A stretch of 49,699 nt of DNA from Bacteriovoracaceae bacterium (GCA_020630335.1 JAHDBN010000018.1:1-49699); one strand, 5' to 3'; positions 5,981-21,703 are shown, counted from the first letter of the stretch. Program-made: numbers and translations. The notes: a model not told the origin generated them from the sequence alone.

Positions 5981-6013
5981 CTAGCGCATGGTTTTAGCCG
6001 TGCGCTAGTTTTA
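5981..6013. terminator. Rho-independent terminator between convergent genes
   Basis: CTAGCGCATGG (5981-5991) pairs with CCGTGCGCTAG (5998-6008): 11 base pairs with one G-U, loop TTTTAG, then TTTTAT on the plus strand. The minus-strand side has an A/T-rich flank, so it may also serve the gene ending at 6011. Confidence 0.8.
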
Positions 6014-7207
6014 TAAATTAATACTGAGTCCTGCTGAAAGTTTAGTGTTACTATACTTTCCTGCAAAAAAGTTATCTTTTGCTTCTTCTTTTTCAAGGCC
6101 TAAATTCCCAGTTAATAGAGGAGAAAACAAGTTATAAGCAGTTAGTTGAACTCCGAACTTCGTTGTTGATTCAAGCCAAGATGACCCATCTAGATTTTTT
6201 GCGTTACTATAGTCAAATTTTGAAAATGAATAATAAGGATTTAAACTAAATCTTTCAAATTTAATATTAGAACTAAGATTTGTGACATGTCCTGAGTAAT
6301 CTCTTGCTCCATAAGAAAGATCTCGTTGACGAGCAAGGCCTAATCCTATTGAAAAATCGATATATTTAGAACTTAATTTTAAATTCGGAACTACTTGAAA
6401 CTTTTCTAATGTCTCTCTCTTTTTTAATCCTATTGTTTGAAAGTTACCATCTTTTTTTAGAGCAAATCGAGTTTTATAATATGTTTTTTCATAACTTAGA
6501 GGGATTTTCAGAAAAGCATTCTTTGAAATCTTAAAATTATTATCAATTAATCCTCTCGTTAATAAATTATCGTTTTGTTCTCCTTGAGTTTCTTTAAAAA
6601 CAGAATAATCGCTATCATATTCTGCAAGCTTTGCTCCGATTGTTAATCGCGAAGAGTACACTTTGTTAAATCGATGTTGATAGAAAAAGCTTTGTCCTAT
6701 CTTAAAATGATCCTCATTTATTGTTAAAAGTTTATAATCTTGAGGGACACTTGGATTGATTTGGAAAGAATCTCCTGATGAATAAACGAAATGGTTATAT
6801 AGTCCTATTTGATTTTTCTTATTGATGAGATAAATAGCTAAAAGGTCATTGTCTAGCATGAAAGTGTTTCTTGGATTAATCCGAGAAGGATTTATTGCTC
6901 CATCAAAAGCATCAATTGGTTGATGAGAGAAAGAGATCTTATTTTTATTGATAAGAAATCCCTTCTTTAAAGGTTTGAATTTCATGACTGAAGAGAGTGA
7001 ATAATTAATGGTTTGGTTTTCTAAACCTTTGGTATCAATAGATGAGTTAGAATCTATTAGATCTTTATCAACTCGAGCAAAATTATCAGAGCTTTCAATA
7101 TTAGTTTGAAAAACTAATGATTTAAGAAACTTAGGTTTTTTTAATAATGCAGTAGAGGTATTTGCTTCTGCCACTGAAAAAAGAAATATAAGTGTAAAGT
7201 ACTTCAT
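6011..7207 (-). CDS. Outer-membrane beta-barrel-like protein
   Basis: The 398-residue protein has an N-terminal signal peptide (MKYFTLIFLFSVAEA) and a mature part made of alternating strands with many Tyr, Ser and Asn. It ends in SAGLSINL, compatible with a barrel C-terminal strand. No conserved enzymatic motif is visible. It lies 9 bp downstream of the DUF547 lipoprotein gene on the same strand and so is probably co-transcribed. The barrel assignment rests on pattern only. Confidence 0.55.
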   Translation of the reverse strand: MKYFTLIFLFSVAEANTSTALLKKPKFLKSLVFQTNIESSDNFARVDKDLIDSNSSIDTKGLENQTINYSLSSVMKFKPLKKGFLINKNKISFSHQPIDAFDGAINPSRINPRNTFMLDNDLLAIYLINKKNQIGLYNHFVYSSGDSFQINPSVPQDYKLLTINEDHFKIGQSFFYQHRFNKVYSSRLTIGAKLAEYDSDYSVFKETQGEQNDNLLTRGLIDNNFKISKNAFLKIPLSYEKTYYKTRFALKKDGNFQTIGLKKRETLEKFQVVPNLKLSSKYIDFSIGLGLARQRDLSYGARDYSGHVTNLSSNIKFERFSLNPYYSFSKFDYSNAKNLDGSSWLESTTKFGVQLTAYNLFSPLLTGNLGLEKEEAKDNFFAGKYSNTKLSAGLSINL

Positions 7208-7216
7208 GATGACCTT

Positions 7217-8098
7217 TTATTTAATGTTTAATCTCCAGTCATAGTCAATGGTGCTACCATTTCCTGAAACTTGAGTGTTAGAATAGATCTCTATAAATTT
7301 TTGAAAAGATCCAAGTTTATTGCCTTTGTAAATATGATTTGAAAAGTCTTTTCCATACCAATCAAACAGCGCTGTTTTCTGATAGCTGCTTCCAGAACCC
7401 TGAAGGTTTCTTGGTAGTAAAAGTCCCTTGCTGGTAATATCGTCTAGCTGAGAATCGAGTTGAGCCGCTTTATAACTTTCTGTATTTAAAATAGGACACC
7501 CTAAAGCCCCACAAATAACGGCAAAATGAAACCTGGCATCTATGCCTTTTGGGCTTTGAACTTCTTTGTATAGAAGTGTTTTTTCTAATCTGTTGAGTGA
7601 AATCTTAGATCCATTGAAATTAAAATTTGAAACATCAAAGATAGCAAATCCTAAAGGTTTTCCTTGGGATTTAATTTCTGTAATACTTTTTATGCCACTG
7701 CTGATGTGGTCACTAATTAAGTCTATTGTGAAAAAGTTATAAGCATTGATCATTAATGCAATCTTTTCATTTTTGCTTAAATCATTAAGCAAGTTTTTTT
7801 GAGCAAGGTATTGAGAAATTAAACTATAAGTTTTTACAAATTTTTGATCTTGAGATTTTTTTAGCTTTGAGATTTTTTTATAATCAACAAGAGTATCAAA
7901 TGATTTAGATCTTGGATTTAGCAGGACAAACTCATTTAAGAAATTATCCATAGATTCAGTAAAGTTTTTTAGAGTTAACTGCTCTTCATCAATTTCAACT
8001 TGAGCATTAGATGATTGTTTCAGCTCTAGCTTTGTCATTTGATTATCTTCTTGGTAACCACATGCTAATAAAGTAAAGAGTAAAAATATTTTTTTCAT
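7217..8098 (-). CDS. DUF547 lipoprotein
   Basis: I choose the ATG at 8098 because it is preceded by AAAGGA and gives a lipoprotein signal (MKKIFLLFTLLAC, Cys13); the frame extends further upstream to 8155 without such a signal. The 293-residue protein contains the DUF547 core: NAYN at 118-121 and HFAVICGALGCP at 191-202. The conserved Asn, His and two Cys suggest an active or metal site, but the biochemical function of DUF547 is not established. A second DUF547 protein is encoded at 9324-10130; the two are diverged paralogues. Confidence 0.8.
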   Translation of the reverse strand: MKKIFLLFTLLACGYQEDNQMTKLELKQSSNAQVEIDEEQLTLKNFTESMDNFLNEFVLLNPRSKSFDTLVDYKKISKLKKSQDQKFVKTYSLISQYLAQKNLLNDLSKNEKIALMINAYNFFTIDLISDHISSGIKSITEIKSQGKPLGFAIFDVSNFNFNGSKISLNRLEKTLLYKEVQSPKGIDARFHFAVICGALGCPILNTESYKAAQLDSQLDDITSKGLLLPRNLQGSGSSYQKTALFDWYGKDFSNHIYKGNKLGSFQKFIEIYSNTQVSGNGSTIDYDWRLNIK

Positions 8099-8224
8099 TT
8101 TAATCCTTTTTGAAATACTCATTTCAAAACTGTATTCGTACAAAGACTGGAGCATGTTACAATAAGAAAGAAAAAAGGCGAAGTAAGGAAAGAAAAGTGA
8201 AAAAAATATAGAATGCGCGCCTAG

Positions 8225-9352
8225 TCAGAGATTCTTAACTAGATCTAAATCTCTAAATACCTCAGTCCCCGGATAGATTCCATGAATATCCCATGAACCA
8301 GCATTCCAGATATGCGCGGACTTTACTGGAGAGTTCGGCTTATTTAGAAAATTTTTTAATTTTAGAAAATATCTGCGTCGAAATAGCTTAAGCCTTAAAT
8401 TACTCCAAGGGTTATTGCTACCATTAAACCGATGAATTCCAGCATAAGGAGCTCCAGCGACTTCGGAAATAGTTTTCCCAGGAGTTTTTCCATCATTTAA
8501 CCAATTTCCTCCACCCAATCCGATTTCGCTAAAAATTAGATCCAAAGATCTTGATAACTCAAGGCCTTTTCTACTTATTTCTTTTCTAAAATTTTTTATG
8601 TAGCGATTGAAATGCTTTACTCCTACCCACCTAGAGATTGGAGCATAAGCAGAGAAACCTAGAAAGTTAATAGAGTCTAATAACAGTTGTAATTCCTTTG
8701 TGTTATAATTTTTAATTCCACCTGAAATTTTATTGTAATTGAGCGAAATACCTAATTTAATTGCAGGGTCTTTAGTTTGGATTTCTTCTATAAGCTTGCG
8801 GTACTCTTGAGGGAAGCTAAAAATAGTTGCTCCCATCTCTCCTTGTAAGGAAAGGGAGACATGCTTTAATTGATTTTCTTTAATTGCTTTAAGAAATGGA
8901 GTGATTAAAAAATCTTTATAACTAAAACCTTGGTTCTTATGATTTGGATTAAAAATTATTTCATTTCTCCAAATTGATCCACTGCCTTTTGAATCATTGA
9001 GATGAATAGTTATATATGTATTTATCTTTTTAGGTATAACGGAGAAGCAGTCAGTTAACTTCTTTGTTATCTTTGTTATCAGGCCTTGATCAATATTTTT
9101 GCATTGTTGTAAGTTTGTAGTGTTATAACAAAAAGATGTTATTTTTTTATTTTGAGCGATAAACTGCCCCGCTAGTAAAAAGTGAATAGATCCTTGATTA
9201 AAAGTTAAGGACTTTTTAGCTCTTTGCGGACATGCATCTAAATCCCATTCATGAAACATAAGAACGGAAGGAGTAATTCCTTTAGCTAAAGCTAGATTAG
9301 TAATAATAAAGAAAATTGAGAGTTTAAAGACTCTCGTTAAGATTCCATCCAT
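8225..9352 (-). CDS. Secreted GH113-like TIM-barrel glycosidase
   Basis: The 375-residue protein has a basic, hydrophobic N-terminus that looks like a signal peptide ending near ALAKG. The central part matches the clan-A layout of GH113 mannanase-like proteins: QGEMG with Glu172 as candidate acid/base, then EYRKLIEEIQ, a strand with a conserved Asn (SLNYN), INFLGFSAYAPIS, and FSEIGLGG with Glu276 as candidate nucleophile. Both Glu fall at strand ends in the expected order. The substrate is unknown. The gene overlaps the preceding DUF547 gene by 29 bp and closes the ECF sigma factor operon. Confidence 0.6.
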   Translation of the reverse strand: MDGILTRVFKLSIFFIITNLALAKGITPSVLMFHEWDLDACPQRAKKSLTFNQGSIHFLLAGQFIAQNKKITSFCYNTTNLQQCKNIDQGLITKITKKLTDCFSVIPKKINTYITIHLNDSKGSGSIWRNEIIFNPNHKNQGFSYKDFLITPFLKAIKENQLKHVSLSLQGEMGATIFSFPQEYRKLIEEIQTKDPAIKLGISLNYNKISGGIKNYNTKELQLLLDSINFLGFSAYAPISRWVGVKHFNRYIKNFRKEISRKGLELSRSLDLIFSEIGLGGGNWLNDGKTPGKTISEVAGAPYAGIHRFNGSNNPWSNLRLKLFRRRYFLKLKNFLNKPNSPVKSAHIWNAGSWDIHGIYPGTEVFRDLDLVKNL

Positions 9353-10130
9353 AATTATTCCAAATTACTTTAAATTGCTCTAAATCAGAAAGTTCTGGTC
9401 TTAAAGTTTTGATAAACTTTTTATAAGATCCAAATTTTTTATTGAAATCACTACCATACCATTTAAAAATTTTTGAAGCATAAAATGTTTTAGATTTAAG
9501 ATCAAACTTATTTTTTTGAAGGTTGTTGATAAAAGCGTTTGAAACATCTTCCAAATGTTTATCGAGGTCTTTGGCACTAAATGCTTTATTGGAAAGAGAA
9601 GGACATCCCATAGAAGCACAGTTTACAGCAAAATGGATTCTTGGTTCATCAAAATCTTTTCTAATAATATCATGTTCTACGTTATCTAAAGAAAGCATCT
9701 TCCCTAAAAGCTTTATGAATTTAATTTTCCATGGGCTTGCACCCACTCCAAGGAAGCCACCTTCGCCTTTTATATCTTTAATTGATTTTAAAGGGTAATG
9801 ATTAATAATTAATTTCACTGTATAAGCATTATAAGCATTGATCCAAAAACTAAGTTTTTGTTTTTTGTTAAATTTTTGAAAATCAGAATCTGATACACTT
9901 TCTAAATGTTTTAAGTAAGAGTTAAGCAAAGAAACATTAGCTTTTAAGGCCTTGTACTTAAATAACGTGCTAATCTTCCCTGGGACTACGTAGTTTTTTA
10001 GAATTTCATTCCAAGCTTGATGATTGTGATCAAAGGCAATCTTTGTTTGGGTAGAGCTTAGATTGTATTGTTTGTTGCTATTCCCACTAGGGAAAAGATT
10101 TAAAGATAAAAGTAAAATTAATATTTTCAT
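9324..10130 (-). CDS. DUF547 protein, exported
   Basis: The start is ATG at 10130, in an ATGA overlap with the stop of the upstream oxidoreductase gene and 5 bases after GGAGAC; an in-frame ATG at 10142 lies before this ribosome binding site. The 268 residues begin with a signal peptide. DUF547 motifs are FWINAYNAYT at 95-104 and HFAVNCASMGCP at 166-177, and the C-terminus has the usual WYGSDF. Its presence in an operon with a disulfide reductase and a TVP38 protein suggests a role in redox or envelope stress. The reaction is unknown. Confidence 0.85.
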   Translation of the reverse strand: MKILILLLSLNLFPSGNSNKQYNLSSTQTKIAFDHNHQAWNEILKNYVVPGKISTLFKYKALKANVSLLNSYLKHLESVSDSDFQKFNKKQKLSFWINAYNAYTVKLIINHYPLKSIKDIKGEGGFLGVGASPWKIKFIKLLGKMLSLDNVEHDIIRKDFDEPRIHFAVNCASMGCPSLSNKAFSAKDLDKHLEDVSNAFINNLQKNKFDLKSKTFYASKIFKWYGSDFNKKFGSYKKFIKTLRPELSDLEQFKVIWNNYGWNLNESL

Positions 10131-11578
10131 GATCGTCTCCATTTATGAAATCTTTCTAATATATCCATTTGCCATTTCTTTATCTGAGAGCGCTTCCATT
10201 CTCCAGCTGCATATTTATTACCCTCACCAAAGCTGGGGTAGGCGTGAATTGTTCCAAGTATTTTATTTAAACCAATATTATATTTAATAGCTGTGACAAA
10301 TTCGATAATCATCGTACTTGCTTGAACTCCCACTATGCTTGCCCCAATAATCTTGTCTTTACCTTTTAAAGTCAAAACTTTTACGAAGCCATAATCAGCA
10401 TCTTCAGCTATGGCCCTATCTAAATCATCTAATTCATATTTTGTGACGTCATAAGCAATACCTGCTTCTTTAGCGCTCATTTCATTTAATCCAACCGTCG
10501 CTACTTCTGGGTCTGTATATGTTGCCCATGATGTTGCATGATAATGAATTTTAAATTTCTTTAATATTCCAAAGAGTCCATTTACCGCACAAAACCATGC
10601 TTGATGAGCAGCCATGTGGGTAAGTTGATAAGGACCAGCAACATCTCCACATGCAAAAATATTTTTATACTTAGTTGTTCTTAAGTATTTATCAACTTTG
10701 ATAGTTCCATTTTGATTTAACTCTATTCCTAACTCTTCTAGACCAAAGCCTGTAGTGTTTGGTCTTCTTCCAATGGCGAGAAGAACTTGATCAAAAATGA
10801 GTTTTGATCCGTCTGCAAGGTGAGCAATGTTTTGATTATTCTCTTTTGAGAACTTTTCTAGCTTAGTAGAAGTTAAAATTTTGATTCCATCTTTTTCTAA
10901 ATGCTTAGTAACTTCTATGGCAACATCTTCATCTTCTTTAGCCATTATCCGAGAAGCCATTTCGACGATTGTCACTTCGCTGCCTAAATTTTGAAAAGAT
11001 TGAGCCATCTCTAAGCCAATTGGCCCTCCTCCAATAACTAAAAATCTTTTTGGTAGTTCTTTTAACTCCCATAAAGTATCGGATATCAAGTAAGGGATTT
11101 CATTTAAACCTGGAATGGGAGGCACAAAAGGTCTCGCTCCTGTAGCAATAGTAATATTTTTAGTAGTTAAAACTTTTCCATTAACTTCTACTTCCCAGGG
11201 AGAAAGAATTTTGGCTTCACCTGTAATACAATCAACTCCGAGATTTGTATAACGTTCTATAGAATCATGTGGTTCAATTTTTTTTATAACCTTATGAACC
11301 CGAGACATGACTTGATTAAAGTTTAAATTAAGATCATGATTTTCTAATCCATATTTAGAAGCATTTTTGATCATCTTTGCAACTTTGGCACTTTTTAGAA
11401 TTGCTTTTGAAGGTACACAGCCTGTATTAAGACAATCTCCACCCATCTTATGTTTTTCAATTAAGGCAACTTTTGCTTTTACAGCAGCACCAATATATGA
11501 AGTGACAAGGCCACCTGCTCCGGCACCAATAGATATCATATTATAATCAAAACTTTTGGGCTTTTTATAGTTTTTCAT
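10127..11578 (-). CDS. MerA/Lpd-type pyridine nucleotide-disulfide oxidoreductase
   Basis: The 483-residue flavoprotein belongs to the class I disulfide reductases. It has an N-terminal FAD-binding Gly-rich motif (GAGAGG), the redox-active pair Cys49 and Cys54 in GGDCLNTGCVPSKA, an NAD(P) motif (GGGPIGLEMAQ), ACGDVAG for FAD, and a C-terminal dimerisation domain ending in AYPSFGEG. It lacks the N-terminal HMA domain, and I see no C-terminal vicinal Cys pair of true mercuric reductases, so mercury reduction is doubtful. Genes of this type are often paired with TVP38 proteins, as here (ATGA overlap). Confidence 0.9.
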   Translation of the reverse strand: MKNYKKPKSFDYNMISIGAGAGGLVTSYIGAAVKAKVALIEKHKMGGDCLNTGCVPSKAILKSAKVAKMIKNASKYGLENHDLNLNFNQVMSRVHKVIKKIEPHDSIERYTNLGVDCITGEAKILSPWEVEVNGKVLTTKNITIATGARPFVPPIPGLNEIPYLISDTLWELKELPKRFLVIGGGPIGLEMAQSFQNLGSEVTIVEMASRIMAKEDEDVAIEVTKHLEKDGIKILTSTKLEKFSKENNQNIAHLADGSKLIFDQVLLAIGRRPNTTGFGLEELGIELNQNGTIKVDKYLRTTKYKNIFACGDVAGPYQLTHMAAHQAWFCAVNGLFGILKKFKIHYHATSWATYTDPEVATVGLNEMSAKEAGIAYDVTKYELDDLDRAIAEDADYGFVKVLTLKGKDKIIGASIVGVQASTMIIEFVTAIKYNIGLNKILGTIHAYPSFGEGNKYAAGEWKRSQIKKWQMDILERFHKWRRS

Positions 11579-12258
11579 GCAACTTCCTTCTTCTTTAAAA
11601 ATTTAAAAGCAAACTTAACGATAAGAGGAAAGCATCCCAGCAAAGCAAAAGAAGCGATGAGGGAGGGTGACATAATACCTTTTAAGCTATCAAGTTTAGA
11701 TAATTGAGAACCTGCATTTACATAGACAGCTGTTCCAGGCAGCATTCCAAGCTGGCTAATAAAATAATAAGTTAAAGTTTTTATGGGAGTCAGGCCCATA
11801 ACCAGATTGATTAGAAAGAAAGGAAAAACTGGAAGCATACGTAGAGTAAATAAGTAGCTTGCACCATCTTTTTTGATTCCTTCGTTGAATACTTTTAGTT
11901 TTTCGCCATATTTTTTTTGAATAGTATCTTTCATTAAAAAACGAGAGACCAAAAAGGCTAAGGTTGCACCTATGCTACTAGCAAAGGATACAATAATGAC
12001 ACCTTTTATAAATCCAAACAAAGCGCCTGCAGTTAGGGTTAGTAGTGTAGCGCCAGGTAAAGATGCCGCTGTACAAAGAATATAGAGGAGAGCAAAAGCT
12101 GTGATTGTTAGAAATGGATTCTGCTCATTATAATCTTTAAAAGATTCAAGGTTGTTTTTAATATAATCTAGATTGAGATATTCAAGTAAGCCTGACATGT
12201 ATATCCCAACACCTAGCAATAGTATCATTATGAAAAAAAAGATTTTTTTGAAATTCAA
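11575..12258 (-). CDS. TVP38/TMEM64 (VTT domain) membrane protein
   Basis: The start is a TTG at 12258 inside TTGA, overlapping the anti-sigma stop, with GGAG 7 bases upstream. The 227-residue protein has about six hydrophobic segments. The VTT/SNARE-associated core (about 65-190) shows the Pro-Gly reentrant motif SLPGATLLTLTAGALFG and the conserved basic FxxRMLPVFPFFLINLVMGLT stretch. Related VTT proteins act as lipid scramblases or transporters. It sits directly before the MerA-like reductase, which suggests a membrane-linked redox function. Confidence 0.88.
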   Translation of the reverse strand: MNFKKIFFFIMILLLGVGIYMSGLLEYLNLDYIKNNLESFKDYNEQNPFLTITAFALLYILCTAASLPGATLLTLTAGALFGFIKGVIIVSFASSIGATLAFLVSRFLMKDTIQKKYGEKLKVFNEGIKKDGASYLFTLRMLPVFPFFLINLVMGLTPIKTLTYYFISQLGMLPGTAVYVNAGSQLSKLDSLKGIMSPSLIASFALLGCFPLIVKFAFKFLKKKEVA

Positions 12259-12908
12259 AGTTTTTCTCCTTCACATCGAATTTGTATTTTAAAGAAAATA
12301 GAACTCAGTAGCGTAAGAATTAAAGAAATAATAAGAAATGATATGAAATGATGTTTAAGAATATGATTGTAATCAAACATACACGTAAAGTTCATTAACA
12401 TTAAGCTTAACAAAGAAACACTTAGAGAGCTTAGAAGAGATGTTTTATATGAAAACATCGCTACTCCTTTATTCAAGAAATAAAGAAGAGTGCATTGAGC
12501 GATGGCTGAAAACAAATATAAATGTGTAGCACATTGATGATTATGAGCATGAATAAAAGAGTGTTCATAAGGATTTATATAGAAAAAGAGTAGGACTAGA
12601 AAGTATGAGAATAAAAAGAAGAATCCTGAAAAAATATAAACTTTTAGATCTTCTCCTGGAATGACACTTTTAAAACTAGCAAGGAGCAAAAAAGAGAAAC
12701 TTGTTATAATTAAAAAAATTTCTAACAAAACCTTAGGATGAAGAAGTTCTTGAGACAAACTTTCTCGATATCCGCTTATAAATCCTATAAGCGGTGCAAA
12801 GAAAAGAATTAAGAATATACCAAAACTAAATGATCTTCTTAAAGGAGAATATAGAGGCTGGGTTGGAGTAAGATCTTGGGTTAATATGTCTATTAATTTT
12901 TTATTCAT
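12255..12908 (-). CDS. NrsF-type anti-sigma factor (DUF1109)
   Basis: The 217-residue protein has a short cytosolic N-terminus (about 28 residues) and six hydrophobic segments. It fits NrsF in size, topology, the S-V-I-P-G motif after the second helix and conserved Cys (HQCATH, AIAQC, NFTC). In Caulobacter NrsF holds sigma F at the membrane and releases it on oxidative or heavy-metal stress through a pair of Cys. The gene overlaps the ECF sigma gene by 8 bp, the expected partner arrangement. Family membership is my reading of motif and context. Confidence 0.7.
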   Translation of the reverse strand: MNKKLIDILTQDLTPTQPLYSPLRRSFSFGIFLILFFAPLIGFISGYRESLSQELLHPKVLLEIFLIITSFSFLLLASFKSVIPGEDLKVYIFSGFFFLFSYFLVLLFFYINPYEHSFIHAHNHQCATHLYLFSAIAQCTLLYFLNKGVAMFSYKTSLLSSLSVSLLSLMLMNFTCMFDYNHILKHHFISFLIISLILTLLSSIFFKIQIRCEGEKL

Positions 12909-13434
12909 GATTGATCTCCTTGATGAGACGCTTTAATTCTTTAATACCTCTTGATAATCTTGTTCTTAGAGCATTTTCTTTAAGTTTCATTTTTAGCGCG
13001 GCTTCTTTTGTGCTAAAGCCTTGTACTTTGGTAAGTAGAATAGGCTCGGAATACTTTTTAGGTAAAGAATTAATCAAATCAATCATTTCATAATCAGTAT
13101 TCGAAATAGCGGGAAGATTTGTTACTTCATCATCAGTAGCTTGCAGCTCTCTAGTCCTAATTGAGGTCTTCTTTCTAATATAATCTATTGATTTGAATTC
13201 AATAATAGCATTGATCCAAGGAGTTAGTTTCTTACTTGGATGAAAAGTTAGAAGTGAGCGATGAATGCCAATAAGTATATTTTGAATGACATCTTCATGG
13301 TCATTTTTATCAAATATTTTCTTCTGAACCCTAAGCCTAATATATTGTTGAATTTGGTTTAGAAAGTCATTATAAGCAGTCTTATTACCTTTTTGAGCAT
13401 CCAAGAGCTTTGATTTTAAGGTTTCAATATTCAT
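12901..13434 (-). CDS. ECF-type RNA polymerase sigma factor
   Basis: The 177-residue protein has sigma region 2 (HEDVIQNILIGIHRSLLTF, PWINAIIEFKSIDYIRK) and region 4 (LPKKYSEPILLTKVQGFSTKEAA...LRTRLSRGIKELK), and no region 1.1 or 3, as in ECF factors. It heads a leftward operon in which all five downstream junctions overlap. By analogy with Caulobacter SigF it probably activates its own operon when the anti-sigma releases it. No clear ribosome binding site precedes the ATG at 13434. CGTCT about 40 bases upstream could be part of an ECF -10 element, but I cannot confirm it. Confidence 0.9.
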   Translation of the reverse strand: MNIETLKSKLLDAQKGNKTAYNDFLNQIQQYIRLRVQKKIFDKNDHEDVIQNILIGIHRSLLTFHPSKKLTPWINAIIEFKSIDYIRKKTSIRTRELQATDDEVTNLPAISNTDYEMIDLINSLPKKYSEPILLTKVQGFSTKEAALKMKLKENALRTRLSRGIKELKRLIKEINHE

Positions 13435-13514
13435 TATAAAGAATTTATACTCTATTTCATAAAATTGAGATAGATAAAAAGACGTATTGTATTGATTAAA
13501 GCATAATAAACAAT

Positions 13515-13916
13515 ATGATAACTTCGCTTTATGCTGCTTTGCTAGCCTGTCTATTCTTTCGTTTTACGATGATGATAATTCGGAAAAGAAAAAAACTTCA
13601 AATTTCTTTAGGCCTTGGAGAAAATAATGAATTATTAGGAGTTGTTAGCGCTTATAATAACTTTACTCAATATGTTCCAATATTTTTAATTCTTTTTTTC
13701 TTAGCTGATCTATCAAATATATATCATTGGCTAATACTGCATCTTCTAGGCCTTGCTTTTTGCTTAGGCCGTGGACTTCATTTTTATGCAATTAAAGATA
13801 AGATGAATTTTAAAAATAGAGTCTTAGGAATGAAGTTAACAATTTGGCCTATACTTATTTTAATGGCTTTAAACATATTTTCGTATCTTAATAACATCAT
13901 TGGATTTATCGAATGA
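13515..13916 (+). CDS. MAPEG family membrane protein (YecN-like)
   Basis: The 133-residue protein has four transmembrane helices and the MAPEG signature: a basic IRKRKKL after helix 1, then AYNNFTQYVPIFLILFF, and LGLAFCLGRGLHFYAI with the Arg expected near the glutathione site. MAPEG proteins are membrane glutathione transferase/peroxidase relatives; bacterial YecN-like members have no firmly known substrate. The stop overlaps the start of the DUF2177 gene (ATGA). Confidence 0.8.
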   Translation: MITSLYAALLACLFFRFTMMIIRKRKKLQISLGLGENNELLGVVSAYNNFTQYVPIFLILFFLADLSNIYHWLILHLLGLAFCLGRGLHFYAIKDKMNFKNRVLGMKLTIWPILILMALNIFSYLNNIIGFIE

Positions 13917-14332
13917 AGAATTTTATTGTAGGAATGGTTTTGCATTTAGTTTTAATTCTAGGCCTTGAGAAGATTTGGTTTTCTTTTGCTGGTAGCTTTT
14001 TGAAAAGAGAGTTATCAAGTATTGCTTTAATTGAGAATAATCAATTTCAAGTAAGATTAAATGCAGCGATATTAGTATATCTAATAATGGCTTTTTCCTT
14101 ACAGTACTTTGTTTTTGCGCTGAAGACTCCAGAAGGTTTATTTGATGTACTTACTCGATCAGCAACACTTGGTTTCGTTGTTTATGGAGTTTTTGATTTA
14201 ACTAATCGAGCGATTTTAAGAGATTACTCTTGGAGTATGGCAATAGTCGATATGTTCTGGGGGGTCTTTCTTTATAGTGCGGTTGGATTGATTTCCTTTT
14301 ATATTTTAGGAAAGTTAAAAGTTATAAATTAA
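13913..14332 (+). CDS. DUF2177 family membrane protein
   Basis: The 139-residue protein has four hydrophobic segments. The DUF2177 signature is clear: a glycine-rich SATLGFVVYG followed by FDLTNRAIL and, in the last helix, MAIVDMFWGVFL. The function of the family is unknown. It is translationally coupled to the MAPEG gene (ATGA overlap) and its end overlaps the convergent Fic gene by 11 bp. Confidence 0.8.
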   Translation: MKNFIVGMVLHLVLILGLEKIWFSFAGSFLKRELSSIALIENNQFQVRLNAAILVYLIMAFSLQYFVFALKTPEGLFDVLTRSATLGFVVYGVFDLTNRAILRDYSWSMAIVDMFWGVFLYSAVGLISFYILGKLKVIN

Positions 14333-16526
14333 TGACTTTCAGAATATCGAAATTAGCTAGGTCATCTTGTTTTGGATGAAACTCACCTGTAAACACGAGA
14401 ATTTGAGAAGGGTTGTCTGGATTTCTATAATAATTCAAGATGACCTTGCCTAATTCATCGATACTTTGAATAATTTCTACAGAATCAGGGTCAGCTGCAC
14501 CAACTCCCATAACTTCTTGTTGTCTTCCATATTTATAAGAAAACTCTGGGCGTAATTGTTTTAGTCGTGTGAGATCAATGTCTTTGTTTGCTCTTTTCAT
14601 CCCGACTAATATTCGTGATTTTAATTTGTTTTGTAATTCAATGTTATGATGCTTGCCATAGGGTGCGATAACCATTGCTCCCATTGCGTATGCTTTACCA
14701 ACAGTTCTTTTTTTAGAAGTTGAGTATCCATAGCTTACTCTATAATTTGGACCAACTTCTGAATGATCTTTTGCCATTTTTACAAAAGAGTTATCAAAAA
14801 GTCCTTGGTTGTATTGTCTGAATTCTTTTGCAATATTTTCAAGTATCTTCTTTTCAGGTAGATCATTTCTGAAAAATTTCCCTAAATCATTCGAGATCAA
14901 ATGGTTATGAATTTTTTTAAACATTGAAACTACTTCCTCTTCTTGCACATAATGGACTTGATTAGAAAGGCCTCTCCATATTATTTCATCACTATACCAG
15001 AGTTTCATTTTAGCTTCATATTGTTTTTTAGAATGATAAGTGTTTTTACCAAACCATTGAATGAAATCTTCATCTGCAAAGTTTAGTTTTAAAAGACCAA
15101 CTCCATGTTTTTTATGATCATAATAAAGGTGAGAGTTTTTTTGAAAATTCAAGAAAGCGTCTAGGATTTCATCATAAGCAATAGATGGATTATTAATGGT
15201 TCGAGATTCGAACAAAGGATTGTTTTCTAAATATTTAAGATAAAAAGAAAGAAACTGTTTACTGTCGATAAGTTCCTTTGCATATCCTTGATAAATTTTC
15301 TTAGATCCTTGTTTCTTAAAAGAAACTTCTATCTGACGCAATGACCGAGGTGAAATAAGTTCTGGAGAATTATTAATACTTAAATTTAAAGATGATCGGT
15401 TGATGAAATCTATAATTAGTTCTTTTGAATTGATTAAGCCTTCTTTGATTTCGTATGCCCATTTATCATTACTAAGAAACATGTCACTGTTAAAATCTAC
15501 TAGACGAGAAGGAGGTAAGCCTTCTTTCATTAATGGATATTGTAGAGCTAACTCTTTTGAACTGCGGCCATTACCATTAATAAATGGATGAATTGAAACT
15601 AGTTTTTTTTGAAACTCTGCTACTAAAGATATTAATCGATCAATTTTAATTGAAGAAGAAATGACTCCAAGATCTTCTCTTGCTTTGTTATACCAGTTAA
15701 ATAGATCCTCTGTTAAACGACTGATAAGCTCTCGATTTAACTCTCTTGGGACATCGAGGCTTTTTGTTTGAATATCTTTGATCTGTCTAACAAGTTCGGG
15801 GTACTTATCTTTCAATGAATTTAATATTACCAAAGAGACATTTGAAACACTTGGATATAAAATATTTCCAGTAAGCATGTTATCGTTTGTGACAGATGTG
15901 ATTTTAAAATCTAAGTAGGGATTTTCTTTAATTATTTTTAATTGTTGCCTTGTGATTGGAGAGGAAGCCGGAACTCTTCCCCATACTGGAGTATCTCTAA
16001 ATCTTCCTAATTGATTTTCTTGTATTCCTTCGATACCGTTTTTCATCATAAGTCGATGAATGGTCTTTAGGGTTTTGAGCGTTATTTCAGGCCTGTTTGT
16101 TAATAGATACTTTCTAGCATCTTTAAAATTTGAGAAAGCATCTTGTTGCCATTTCTTACTTTTCTTTTTACCAAAAATCCTTCTAATGTCATCGATGATG
16201 CTACTGTAAGCTTTAACATTATATTTTTCTGAAATATTAAGGTCGTGAAGTGTTTTTTCTTCAAAAAATAATGAGTTAAGTTCATTGACTTGATGTGGAT
16301 AGTTAATGAAGCTGAACGCTTCAATATTACTTAGAAGCTTTATCTTATCGTCTTCATTAAAGTCATTTAAATAATCTGAGAACTCATCCCACGATTTATT
16401 ATATGCAGTATCCAAAAAGCTTTCTAAGTATTTATCACAAAAATCAAGATGCCCCTTGGATGAATTTGCGATACTTATAAAAGGAAAATTAACTAAGACA
16501 AAAACAATTAAAAGAAGTGCTTTCAT
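14322..16526 (-). CDS. Secreted Fic protein with C-terminal ADP-ribosyltransferase-like region
   Basis: The 734-residue protein starts with a signal peptide (residues 1-20). A Fic domain spans about 140-380: GRFRDTPVWG at 174-183 is the usual pre-motif, and HPFINGNGR at 313-321 is the catalytic loop (His313 base, Arg321), with Asn for the common Asp/Glu at 317 and Lys for the final Arg at 324. No (S/T)xxxE(G/N) inhibitory helix is obvious. The C-terminal 230 residues look like an R-S-E ADP-ribosyltransferase: IIWRGL (Arg518), SYGYSTS (Ser602-Thr603-Ser604) and RQQEV (Gln669-x-Glu671). Fic enzymes usually AMPylate proteins, so export suggests an effector. The ART call is inference from three short motifs in correct order. 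Confidence 0.8.
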   Translation of the reverse strand: MKALLLIVFVLVNFPFISIANSSKGHLDFCDKYLESFLDTAYNKSWDEFSDYLNDFNEDDKIKLLSNIEAFSFINYPHQVNELNSLFFEEKTLHDLNISEKYNVKAYSSIIDDIRRIFGKKKSKKWQQDAFSNFKDARKYLLTNRPEITLKTLKTIHRLMMKNGIEGIQENQLGRFRDTPVWGRVPASSPITRQQLKIIKENPYLDFKITSVTNDNMLTGNILYPSVSNVSLVILNSLKDKYPELVRQIKDIQTKSLDVPRELNRELISRLTEDLFNWYNKAREDLGVISSSIKIDRLISLVAEFQKKLVSIHPFINGNGRSSKELALQYPLMKEGLPPSRLVDFNSDMFLSNDKWAYEIKEGLINSKELIIDFINRSSLNLSINNSPELISPRSLRQIEVSFKKQGSKKIYQGYAKELIDSKQFLSFYLKYLENNPLFESRTINNPSIAYDEILDAFLNFQKNSHLYYDHKKHGVGLLKLNFADEDFIQWFGKNTYHSKKQYEAKMKLWYSDEIIWRGLSNQVHYVQEEEVVSMFKKIHNHLISNDLGKFFRNDLPEKKILENIAKEFRQYNQGLFDNSFVKMAKDHSEVGPNYRVSYGYSTSKKRTVGKAYAMGAMVIAPYGKHHNIELQNKLKSRILVGMKRANKDIDLTRLKQLRPEFSYKYGRQQEVMGVGAADPDSVEIIQSIDELGKVILNYYRNPDNPSQILVFTGEFHPKQDDLANFDILKVINL

Positions 16527-20580: not shown

Positions 20581-20671
20581 GAATATTATTAATATTATAG
20601 ATTTAACTTAGATCTTACCAATTAAGTAACAAAAATGTATTTTTTCTCGAATATACTATAAGAAGGGATTT

Positions 20672-21703
20672 ATGAAATATTTACTCTACATTTTTCTTTT
20701 GAGCTTTAATGCATTGAGCTTGGAAATAGCAACCTTTGCTGGAGGCTGTTTTTGGTGTGTTGAAGCTGATTTAGAGAAAATACCTGGAGTAAGAGAAGTT
20801 ATTTCTGGATATTCAGGAGGGAAGAAGATTAGCCCCTCATATCAAGAAGTATCATCTGGGAAGACTGAACATCTAGAAGCAGTTCAAGTTCGATTTGATA
20901 GTGGTGTTATTAGTTTTAGGGACTTATTGATTGAGTTTTTTAGTATTATCGATCCTACTGACTCAAGTGGACAGTTTGTTGATAGGGGAGTTCATTATAG
21001 TACTGCTATTTTTTTTCATAATGCGAATCAAAAAAAAACAGCAGGAGATGTTAAAAAACTAATTGAATCAAAAAAGATCTTCAAGAAAACAATAATTACT
21101 CCAATTATTAAATATAAAAATTTTTATAGAGCAGAAACATATCACCAAGATTTTTATAAAAAAAACAAGAAGTCTATTAAGCGATATAAAGCTTATAGAA
21201 AACATTCTGGAAGAGATGAATTTATTAAAAAGTATTGGAAAAAACATAAAGCAAACTTGTTAGGAAGTCATGGTATCAAACTAAGCAAAAAAGAGTTGAA
21301 AAATAAACTAACAAGAATGCAGTTTTACGTGACTCAAGAAAATGGAACAGAGCCTCCTTTTAAAAATAAATATTATAAGAATACAAGAGAAGGTATTTAC
21401 GTAGATATAGTTTCGGGAGAAGCACTTTTTAGTTCTAAAGACAAATTTAAATCAGGCACAGGGTGGCCTTCATTTACTAAGCCTATTGATAAAGATCATA
21501 TTGTAGAAAAAGATGACTCTTCTTTATTTATGAAGAGAGTAGAGGTTAGATCTAGGTACTCAGACTCTCATCTCGGTCATGTTTTTACAGATGGCCCGAA
21601 ACCTACAGGTTTAAGATATTGTATTAATTCAGCATCTTTAAGGTTTATCCCTAAAGATGAGTTGAAAGGTTCAAGGTATGAAATTTATCTGAGAGATTTT
21701 TAA
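20672..21703 (+). CDS. msrAB: Exported bifunctional methionine sulfoxide reductase MsrA-MsrB
   Basis: The 343-residue protein begins with a signal peptide. The MsrA domain (about 18-190) has GGCFWC with nucleophile Cys26, and the MsrB domain (about 205-343) has GTGWPSF, HLGHVF and catalytic Cys317 in RYCINS. The MsrB part lacks the CxxC zinc pairs ([11 protein letters not shown] replaces the first). It repairs both sulfoxide epimers of oxidised Met in periplasmic or secreted proteins. It is a single-gene unit, divergent from the SGNH gene, with AAGAAGG before the ATG. Confidence 0.95.

What the first reader, a model, noticed from the sequence alone, without database searches (positions are those of the whole stretch)
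8225..13434. Six-gene ECF sigma operon in which every junction overlaps
Sigma factor, NrsF-like anti-sigma, TVP38, MerA-like reductase, DUF547 and GH113-like genes overlap by 8, 4, 4, 4 and 29 bp. This tight coupling implies fixed stoichiometry and one function. NrsF in Caulobacter senses metals and oxidants through Cys. Linking DUF547 and a glycosidase-like protein to this switch offers a route to the unknown role of DUF547 in envelope redox stress.
Basis: partly seen in the sequence, partly recalled or inferred. Interest (0 to 1): 0.65.

Follow-up and report, generated by a model that had tools for sequence, protein, structure and literature searches.

The report
Metal/oxidant stress switch with DUF547 cargo
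A predatory-bacterium relative carries a known type of metal- and oxidant-sensing gene switch (an ECF16 sigma factor with its NrsF brake) wired to a little-understood set of envelope proteins (TVP38, a MerA-like reductase and two DUF547 proteins) that in many other bacteria sits in arsenic-sugar gene clusters, which gives a testable route to what DUF547 does.

Summary
The six overlapping genes are real (overlaps 8, 4, 4, 4, 29 bp), but overlap is common in this window and the unit is longer: DUF547b and an outer-membrane-barrel-like gene follow (6011-8098). The regulator fits ECF16/NrsF: two NrsF cysteines 50 residues apart, and the published ECF16 promoter motif GTAAC-N17-CGAA occurs three times in the window (0.13 expected). 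The sites lie before DUF547b, before msrAB (20672), and inside the sigma gene. In a sister species the same operon is divergent from a complete copper-bufferin cluster. Gene order is conserved in all four genomes of the genus, but MerA is missing from one and the glycosidase-like gene is in the operon in only two. DUF547a with TVP38-MerA is a widespread module: 57 of 80 DUF547a loci carry TVP38-MerA and/or arsenosugar-type genes, and four distant ArsS clusters carry NrsF beside them, three of these with the ECF16 motif (one imperfect) before ArsS. So the stress-switch idea is supported. Fixed stoichiometry, an obligate glycosidase partner and a true mercuric reductase are not. Best reading: an ECF16 response to thiophilic metals and oxidants with envelope-repair and detoxification cargo. 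The chemistry of DUF547 remains inferred.

The parts
12901..13434 (-). ECF sigma factor, two-domain (sigma2, sigma4), ECF16/SigF-like
   Evidence: Pfam PF08281 44 bits and PF04542 32 bits, both above cut-off; published ECF16 motif at its likely targets
12255..12908 (-). NrsF-like (DUF1109) membrane anti-sigma
   Evidence: PF06532 E=5e-4, 20.4 bits, below cut-off 26.8; C126 and C176 invariant in five homologues, spacing 50 as in C131/C181 of Caulobacter NrsF; a paralogue in a sister genome scores 44 bits
11575..12258 (-). TVP38/DedA (COG0398-type) membrane protein
   Evidence: PF09335 84 bits; homologue is fused to the MerA-like enzyme in most of the family (open frames 705-730 aa)
10127..11578 (-). 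MerA-like FAD/NAD(P) disulfide oxidoreductase; CX4C redox pair kept, no C-terminal Cys pair
   Evidence: PF07992 235 bits; TIGR02053 MerA 370 bits, below cut-off 454; alignment to MerA 5x1y
9324..10130 (-). DUF547a, exported protein with invariant H166, C171, C176
   Evidence: PF04784 89 bits; invariant columns in 43 sequences; AF2 pLDDT 91.6
8225..9352 (-). Exported glycosidase-like (clan GH-A-like barrel, tentative), lineage-specific member
   Evidence: No Pfam/NCBIfam hit; Foldseek GH164 beta-mannosidase and GH5 mannanases E about 1e-4 on a low-confidence model (pLDDT 64); two invariant Glu, E172 and E276
8135..8161 (-). ECF16-type promoter TGTAAC-N17-CGAA before DUF547b
   Evidence: Exact match, conserved before DUF547b in 4/4 genus genomes with diverged spacers
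7217..8098 (-). DUF547b, predicted lipoprotein
   Evidence: PF04784 61 bits; conserved after DUF547a in 4/4 genus genomes
6011..7207 (-). Outer-membrane-barrel-like protein, always paired with DUF547b in the genus
   Evidence: No Pfam hit; adjacent to DUF547b in 4/4 genus genomes and in other genera; 'barrel' is inferred from sequence pattern
13100..13126 (-). Candidate intragenic ECF16-type promoter inside the sigma gene (GTAAC-N17-CGAA)
   Evidence: Conserved at the same codon position (nt 310 of the coding frame, counted from the aligned start) in five sigma genes; needs rare codons TCG (4%) or GCG (6%)
20625..20651 (+). ECF16-type promoter before msrAB
   Evidence: GTAAC-N17-CGAA 46 nt before the gene; orthologue in G001 has TGTAAC-N16-CGAA; three exact sites in the window, 0.13 expected
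20672..21703 (+). MsrA-MsrB fusion, probable member of the same regulon
   Evidence: PF01625 and PF01641; promoter at 20625-20651

Best explanation
The block is the core of an ECF16 (SigF-NrsF-type) stress regulon. NrsF holds the sigma factor at the inner membrane; modification of its two conserved cysteines by thiophilic metals or oxidants would release sigma (inferred from homologues). Sigma then drives promoters of the form GTAAC-N17-CGAA before DUF547b-barrel, before msrAB and probably inside its own gene, which would raise NrsF and cargo more than sigma itself. The cargo is a mobile module: a TVP38-tethered MerA-like flavin reductase at the inner membrane plus exported DUF547 proteins. 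Elsewhere this module belongs to arsenosugar-type clusters, so it most likely supplies or repairs reduced thiol/thiolate chemistry, or handles metal(loid)-thiolate or sugar intermediates, in the envelope. Shown by sequence: the genes, gene order, motif and association with ArsS/NrsF. Inferred: signal, sigma release, promoter activity and DUF547 chemistry. The stated confidence covers the regulatory half; the metal(loid)/thiol role of the cargo is nearer 0.4.
For: sigma-NrsF-TVP38-(MerA)-DUF547a-DUF547b-barrel conserved in 4/4 genus genomes. NrsF C126/C176 invariant with spacing 50, as in Caulobacter C131/C181 and Brucella/Bradyrhizobium C129/C179. Published ECF16 consensus (T/C)GTAAC-N17-CGAA; its GTAAC-N17-CGAA core is present three times in the window against 0.13 expected, 0 of 100 shuffles reaching 3, all at meaningful places; full motif before DUF547b in 4/4 genomes, before sigma in two, before a thioredoxin-like gene and bufferin DUF2282 in sisters. 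In G002 the operon is divergent from DUF2282 + MNIO + DUF2063, a bufferin cluster, a known NrsF partner. Module: 19 of 37 genomes with both genes have DUF547a within 3 kb of MerA; 57/80 DUF547a loci have TVP38-MerA and/or ArsS/ArsM/TIGR04282/TIGR04283. NrsF beside ArsS in Zwartia, Hydrogenophaga, another betaproteobacterium and Dadabacteria. Motif 50-61 nt before ArsS or TVP38-MerA in four loci, against 0-1 for eight control patterns.
Against: The window's NrsF-like protein is below the Pfam cut-off. No ECF16 motif precedes the window's own sigma gene. Genome-wide motif counts are no higher than the reversed control, so the motif argument rests on position. ArsS and ArsM are absent from this genome, so an arsenosugar role cannot hold here in full. 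No expression data. DUF547 has no structural match that suggests a reaction.
Confidence: 0.68

Rival explanations
1. The cargo is an envelope glycan or glycolipid modification pathway: the glycosidase-like gene, DUF547, the barrel and the TIGR04283/TIGR04282/GT2/GT87-like glycosyltransferases act together, and stress control is secondary.
For: In the sister genus G064 the glycosyltransferases lie with the glycosidase-like gene, DUF547b and barrel; the window's genome keeps the four glycosyltransferases at C17 beside an ECF16 motif.
Against: The glycosidase-like gene is outside the operon in two of four species. Elsewhere DUF547a co-occurs with ArsS and ArsM as well as with the glycosyltransferases.
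Confidence: 0.2
2. Ordinary oxidative-stress operon: a generic ECF16/NrsF response (as for Msr regulons) with unrelated passengers; DUF547 has no special link to it.
For: msrAB has an ECF16-type promoter here, and Msr genes are shared ECF16 targets. Overlaps are common in this genome.
Against: The same cargo types (TVP38-MerA, DUF547) recur beside NrsF or behind ECF16 motifs in betaproteobacteria and Dadabacteria. DUF547b has its own conserved ECF16-type promoter.
Confidence: 0.2
3. Mercury resistance operon with a true mercuric reductase.
For: MerA is among the best NCBIfam and PDB matches.
Against: Below the TIGR02053 cut-off; no C-terminal Cys pair; no merR/merT/merP in the block.
Confidence: 0.03

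Closest known systems
Caulobacter SigF-NrsF (ECF16) regulon
   Same: sigma followed by NrsF; two Cys 50 apart; GTAAC-N17-CGAA promoters; bufferin cluster (DUF2282-MNIO-DUF2063) beside the operon in sister species G002
   Different: Cargo here is TVP38, MerA-like reductase, DUF547a/b and a barrel; the bufferin is absent from the window's own genome; no motif before its sigma gene
Brucella BcrS-AbcS / Bradyrhizobium EcfF-OsrA (ECF16, HOCl or ROS response)
   Same: Similar promoter consensus and the same cysteine pair; Msr as a target
   Different: No DUF547, TVP38 or MerA-like cargo is described in the passages read
Arsenosugar-type ArsS/ArsM/TIGR04282/TIGR04283 clusters
   Same: DUF547a and TVP38-MerA are frequent neighbours; some carry NrsF and ECF16 motifs
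   Different: This genome lacks ArsS and ArsM; its glycosyltransferases are divergent, its TIGR04283 relatives are below cut-off, and they lie at another locus
TVP38 (COG0398 DedA)-pyridine nucleotide-disulfide oxidoreductase fusions
   Same: Same two domains, known as the commonest COG0398 fusion (PMC10127716)
   Different: Split into two overlapping genes in this genus and in sister genus G064

Membership tests
ECF16 sigma / NrsF anti-sigma | Two-domain ECF sigma followed directly by an NrsF/DUF1109 gene | tested here: met
   NrsF hit is weak in the window protein (E=5e-4, below cut-off), above cut-off in a sister-genome paralogue
ECF16 sigma / NrsF anti-sigma | Two conserved cysteines 50 residues apart in the anti-sigma | tested here: met
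   C126 and C176 invariant in five homologues; literature C131/C181 and C129/C179
ECF16 sigma / NrsF anti-sigma | (T/C)GTAAC-N17-CGAA target promoters | tested here: met
   Exact site before DUF547b in 4/4 genomes, before sigma in G002/G003; 3 GTAAC-N17-CGAA in the window vs 0.13 expected; promoter activity not tested
ECF16 sigma / NrsF anti-sigma | Autoregulated promoter directly before the sigma gene in this genome | tested here: not met
   No match within two mismatches upstream of 13434; not essential to the group, sister species have it
ECF16 sigma / NrsF anti-sigma | Placement by ECF-group HMMs; six transmembrane helices; sigma-NrsF binding | not tested
   No ECF-group library or topology predictor used; binding needs experiment
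Mercuric reductase (MerA) | NCBIfam TIGR02053 cut-off | tested here: not met
   370 bits against 454
Mercuric reductase (MerA) | C-terminal vicinal cysteine pair | tested here: not met
   Protein ends ...HKWRRS; alignment to MerA 5x1y stops before its C-terminus
Mercuric reductase (MerA) | CX4C redox-active pair | tested here: met
   GGDCLNTGCVPSK; shared with related disulfide reductases
Arsenosugar biosynthesis cluster | ArsS (TIGR04167) present | tested here: not met
   No match in G000
Arsenosugar biosynthesis cluster | ArsM present | tested here: not met
   Only E about 1e-3 matches in G000
Bufferin (DUF2282) cluster | DUF2282 precursor and MNIO enzyme | tested here: not met
   DUF2282 absent in G000 and G001, present in G002 and G003; DUF2282-MNIO-DUF2063 next to the operon in G002
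Glycoside hydrolase GH113 | GH113 fold and sequence signature | tested here: inconclusive
   No family hit; low-confidence barrel resembling GH164/GH5; no row named GH113 among those shown, which excludes nothing
DUF547 (PF04784) | Pfam model over cut-off | tested here: met
   89 and 61 bits against 27

The most novel reading that the evidence does not exclude
DUF547 and TVP38-MerA form a dedicated envelope module for metal(loid)-thiolate or organoarsenical intermediates that ECF16/NrsF switches have recruited repeatedly. In this genus the module outlived the loss of ArsM/ArsS and, in some species, of bufferins, and the sigma gene carries an internal self-driven promoter that feeds its own anti-sigma and cargo.
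Probability: 0.25. Interest if true: 0.75.

Novelty: new variant of a known kind. Interest (0 to 1): 0.52.

Why it matters
DUF547 is a family of unknown function; the paper library held 21 papers naming it, and judged by titles and abstracts none treats a bacterial DUF547 function. Tying it to a defined regulator, a defined promoter and a defined partner enzyme, across phyla, turns 'unknown' into a short list of tests: which metal(loid) or oxidant induces it, and what accumulates when it is removed. It also extends the ECF16/NrsF regulon beyond bufferins and Msr.

Tried and rejected
Fold search with the confident DUF547a model gave no useful PDB match (best Foldseek E 0.84; best Z 4.8, a range that is uninformative). 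The glycosidase-like model is weak (pLDDT 64), so its GH-A assignment is tentative. Sequence search of PDB with DUF547a or the glycosidase-like protein found nothing credible. Sigma-70 promoter and terminator scans were at chance level. Plasmid records added only distant DUF547 hits. Genome-wide counts of TGTAAC-N17-CGAA equal the reversed control, so total counts were not used as evidence. Mercury resistance was rejected. A search for papers linking arsenosugars to TVP38 found none, and a search over arsenosugar, sigma factor, NrsF and bufferin listed none holding both arsenosugar and NrsF among the ten shown.

Full report
Observation. The six minus-strand genes and their overlaps of 8, 4, 4, 4 and 29 bp are as described. 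Overlap is not rare here: 4 of the 16 other same-strand neighbour pairs counted in the window overlap. The unit continues past the stated end into DUF547b (7217-8098) and an outer-membrane-barrel-like gene (6011-7207).

What the proteins are. The sigma factor, TVP38 and both DUF547 proteins are clear Pfam members; the NrsF-like protein is weak (E=5e-4). The MerA-like enzyme keeps the CX4C pair but misses the MerA cut-off and the C-terminal cysteine pair. The glycosidase-like protein has no family hit; a low-confidence model looks like a clan GH-A barrel. DUF547a folds confidently (pLDDT 91.6) but matches nothing informative in the PDB.

Conservation. Only four genomes of the genus are held. 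All have sigma-NrsF-TVP38-DUF547a-DUF547b-barrel in order; MerA is missing from G003, and the glycosidase-like gene lies in the operon only in G000 and G001 and elsewhere in G002 and G003. Across the family, TVP38 and MerA are usually one fused protein, and 19 of 37 genomes that have both genes have DUF547a within 3 kb of it.

Regulator identity. NrsF C126 and C176 are invariant and 50 residues apart, as in Caulobacter (C131/C181) and in Brucella and Bradyrhizobium (C129/C179). The published ECF16 motif is (T/C)GTAAC-N17-CGAA; the Caulobacter form GTAACC-N16-CGAA has the same geometry. In the window GTAAC-N17-CGAA occurs three times against 0.13 expected, and no shuffle of 100 reached three: before DUF547b, before msrAB, and inside the sigma gene. 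The motif was picked from upstream sequences in this genus and then found to equal the published one. The DUF547b site is conserved in four of four genomes with diverged spacers, and two sister sigma genes carry it upstream. It is absent before the window's own sigma gene. Genome-wide totals do not exceed the reversed control, so the weight lies on position. The sites inside the sigma gene and before msrAB have A, not T or C, before GTAAC.

Internal promoter candidate. All five sigma genes examined, including a paralogue, have GTAAC-N17-CGAA at the same codon position, about 190 nt before NrsF; it needs the rare codons TCG or GCG, about 4% and 6% of their families. G002 and G003 are close relatives, so there are about three independent lineages. 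If active, it would make NrsF and cargo without sigma. This is inference from sequence.

Bufferin link. In G002 the operon is divergent from DUF2282, MNIO (PF05114) and DUF2063 genes, a bufferin cluster, a type in which sigma and NrsF genes are known. G003 has DUF2282 behind an ECF16-type promoter at another locus. G000 and G001 lack DUF2282.

Wider module. Of 80 DUF547a loci from across phyla, 33 have TVP38-MerA (fused or split), 41 have ArsS, ArsM, TIGR04283 or TIGR04282 relatives, and 57 have either; neighbours concentrate within 3 kb. ArsS identity is firm where scored against TIGR04167: 439-465 bits in L133, L081, L087 and L150, cut-off 300. Many Bdellovibrionota relatives of ArsS, ArsM and the glycosyltransferases are below cut-off. 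NrsF lies near ArsS in L133 (Zwartia), L121 (Hydrogenophaga), L109 and L087 (Dadabacteria). The ECF16 motif starts 50-61 nt before the ArsS or TVP38-MerA open frame in L109, L127, L133 and L151, against 0-1 for eight control patterns, with an imperfect case in L121. NrsF is present in 5 of 5 genomes with such a motif and 4 of 16 without, Fisher p=0.006, not corrected for relatedness and partly built on loci already known to hold NrsF.

This genome lacks ArsS and ArsM; divergent glycosyltransferases sit at C17 beside an ECF16 motif that points to a small secreted peptide gene. In sister genus G064 the same glycosyltransferases lie with the glycosidase-like gene, DUF547b and barrel.

Verdict. 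The block is an ECF16/NrsF-type operon with new cargo. The cargo's most likely task is envelope protection against thiophilic metal(loid)s and oxidants, perhaps through metal(loid)-thiolate or sugar intermediates; that last step is inferred. Stoichiometric coupling and a necessary glycosidase partner are not supported.

Noticed in passing
window 20625-21703: MsrA-MsrB fusion gene with an ECF16-type promoter; the G001 orthologue has TGTAAC-N16-CGAA. Probable second regulon member.
   Followed up: partly
window 13100-13126 and sigma genes in L021, L022, L023: Intragenic GTAAC-N17-CGAA at the same codon position in five sigma genes, using rare codons.
   Followed up: partly
L021 (G001:C172) 5983-15289: Apparent tandem duplication of sigma to DUF547a, with identical-scoring copies and a truncated DUF547a; may be an assembly artefact.
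   Followed up: no
L162 8375-8593 and G001:C51 near 1742: Small secreted Gly-rich acidic peptide gene behind an ECF16-type promoter, divergent from a glycosyltransferase locus.
   Followed up: partly
G002:C22:105142 and G003:C5:16416: Thioredoxin-like protein with a CPGC motif behind an ECF16-type promoter.
   Followed up: no
L023 between 9110 and 9187: MerA-like gene missing from the operon in G003; TVP38 and DUF547a lie 76 bp apart.
   Followed up: partly
window 13515-14332: MAPEG and DUF2177 genes divergent from sigma in G000 and G001 but not at the operon in G002 and G003.
   Followed up: no
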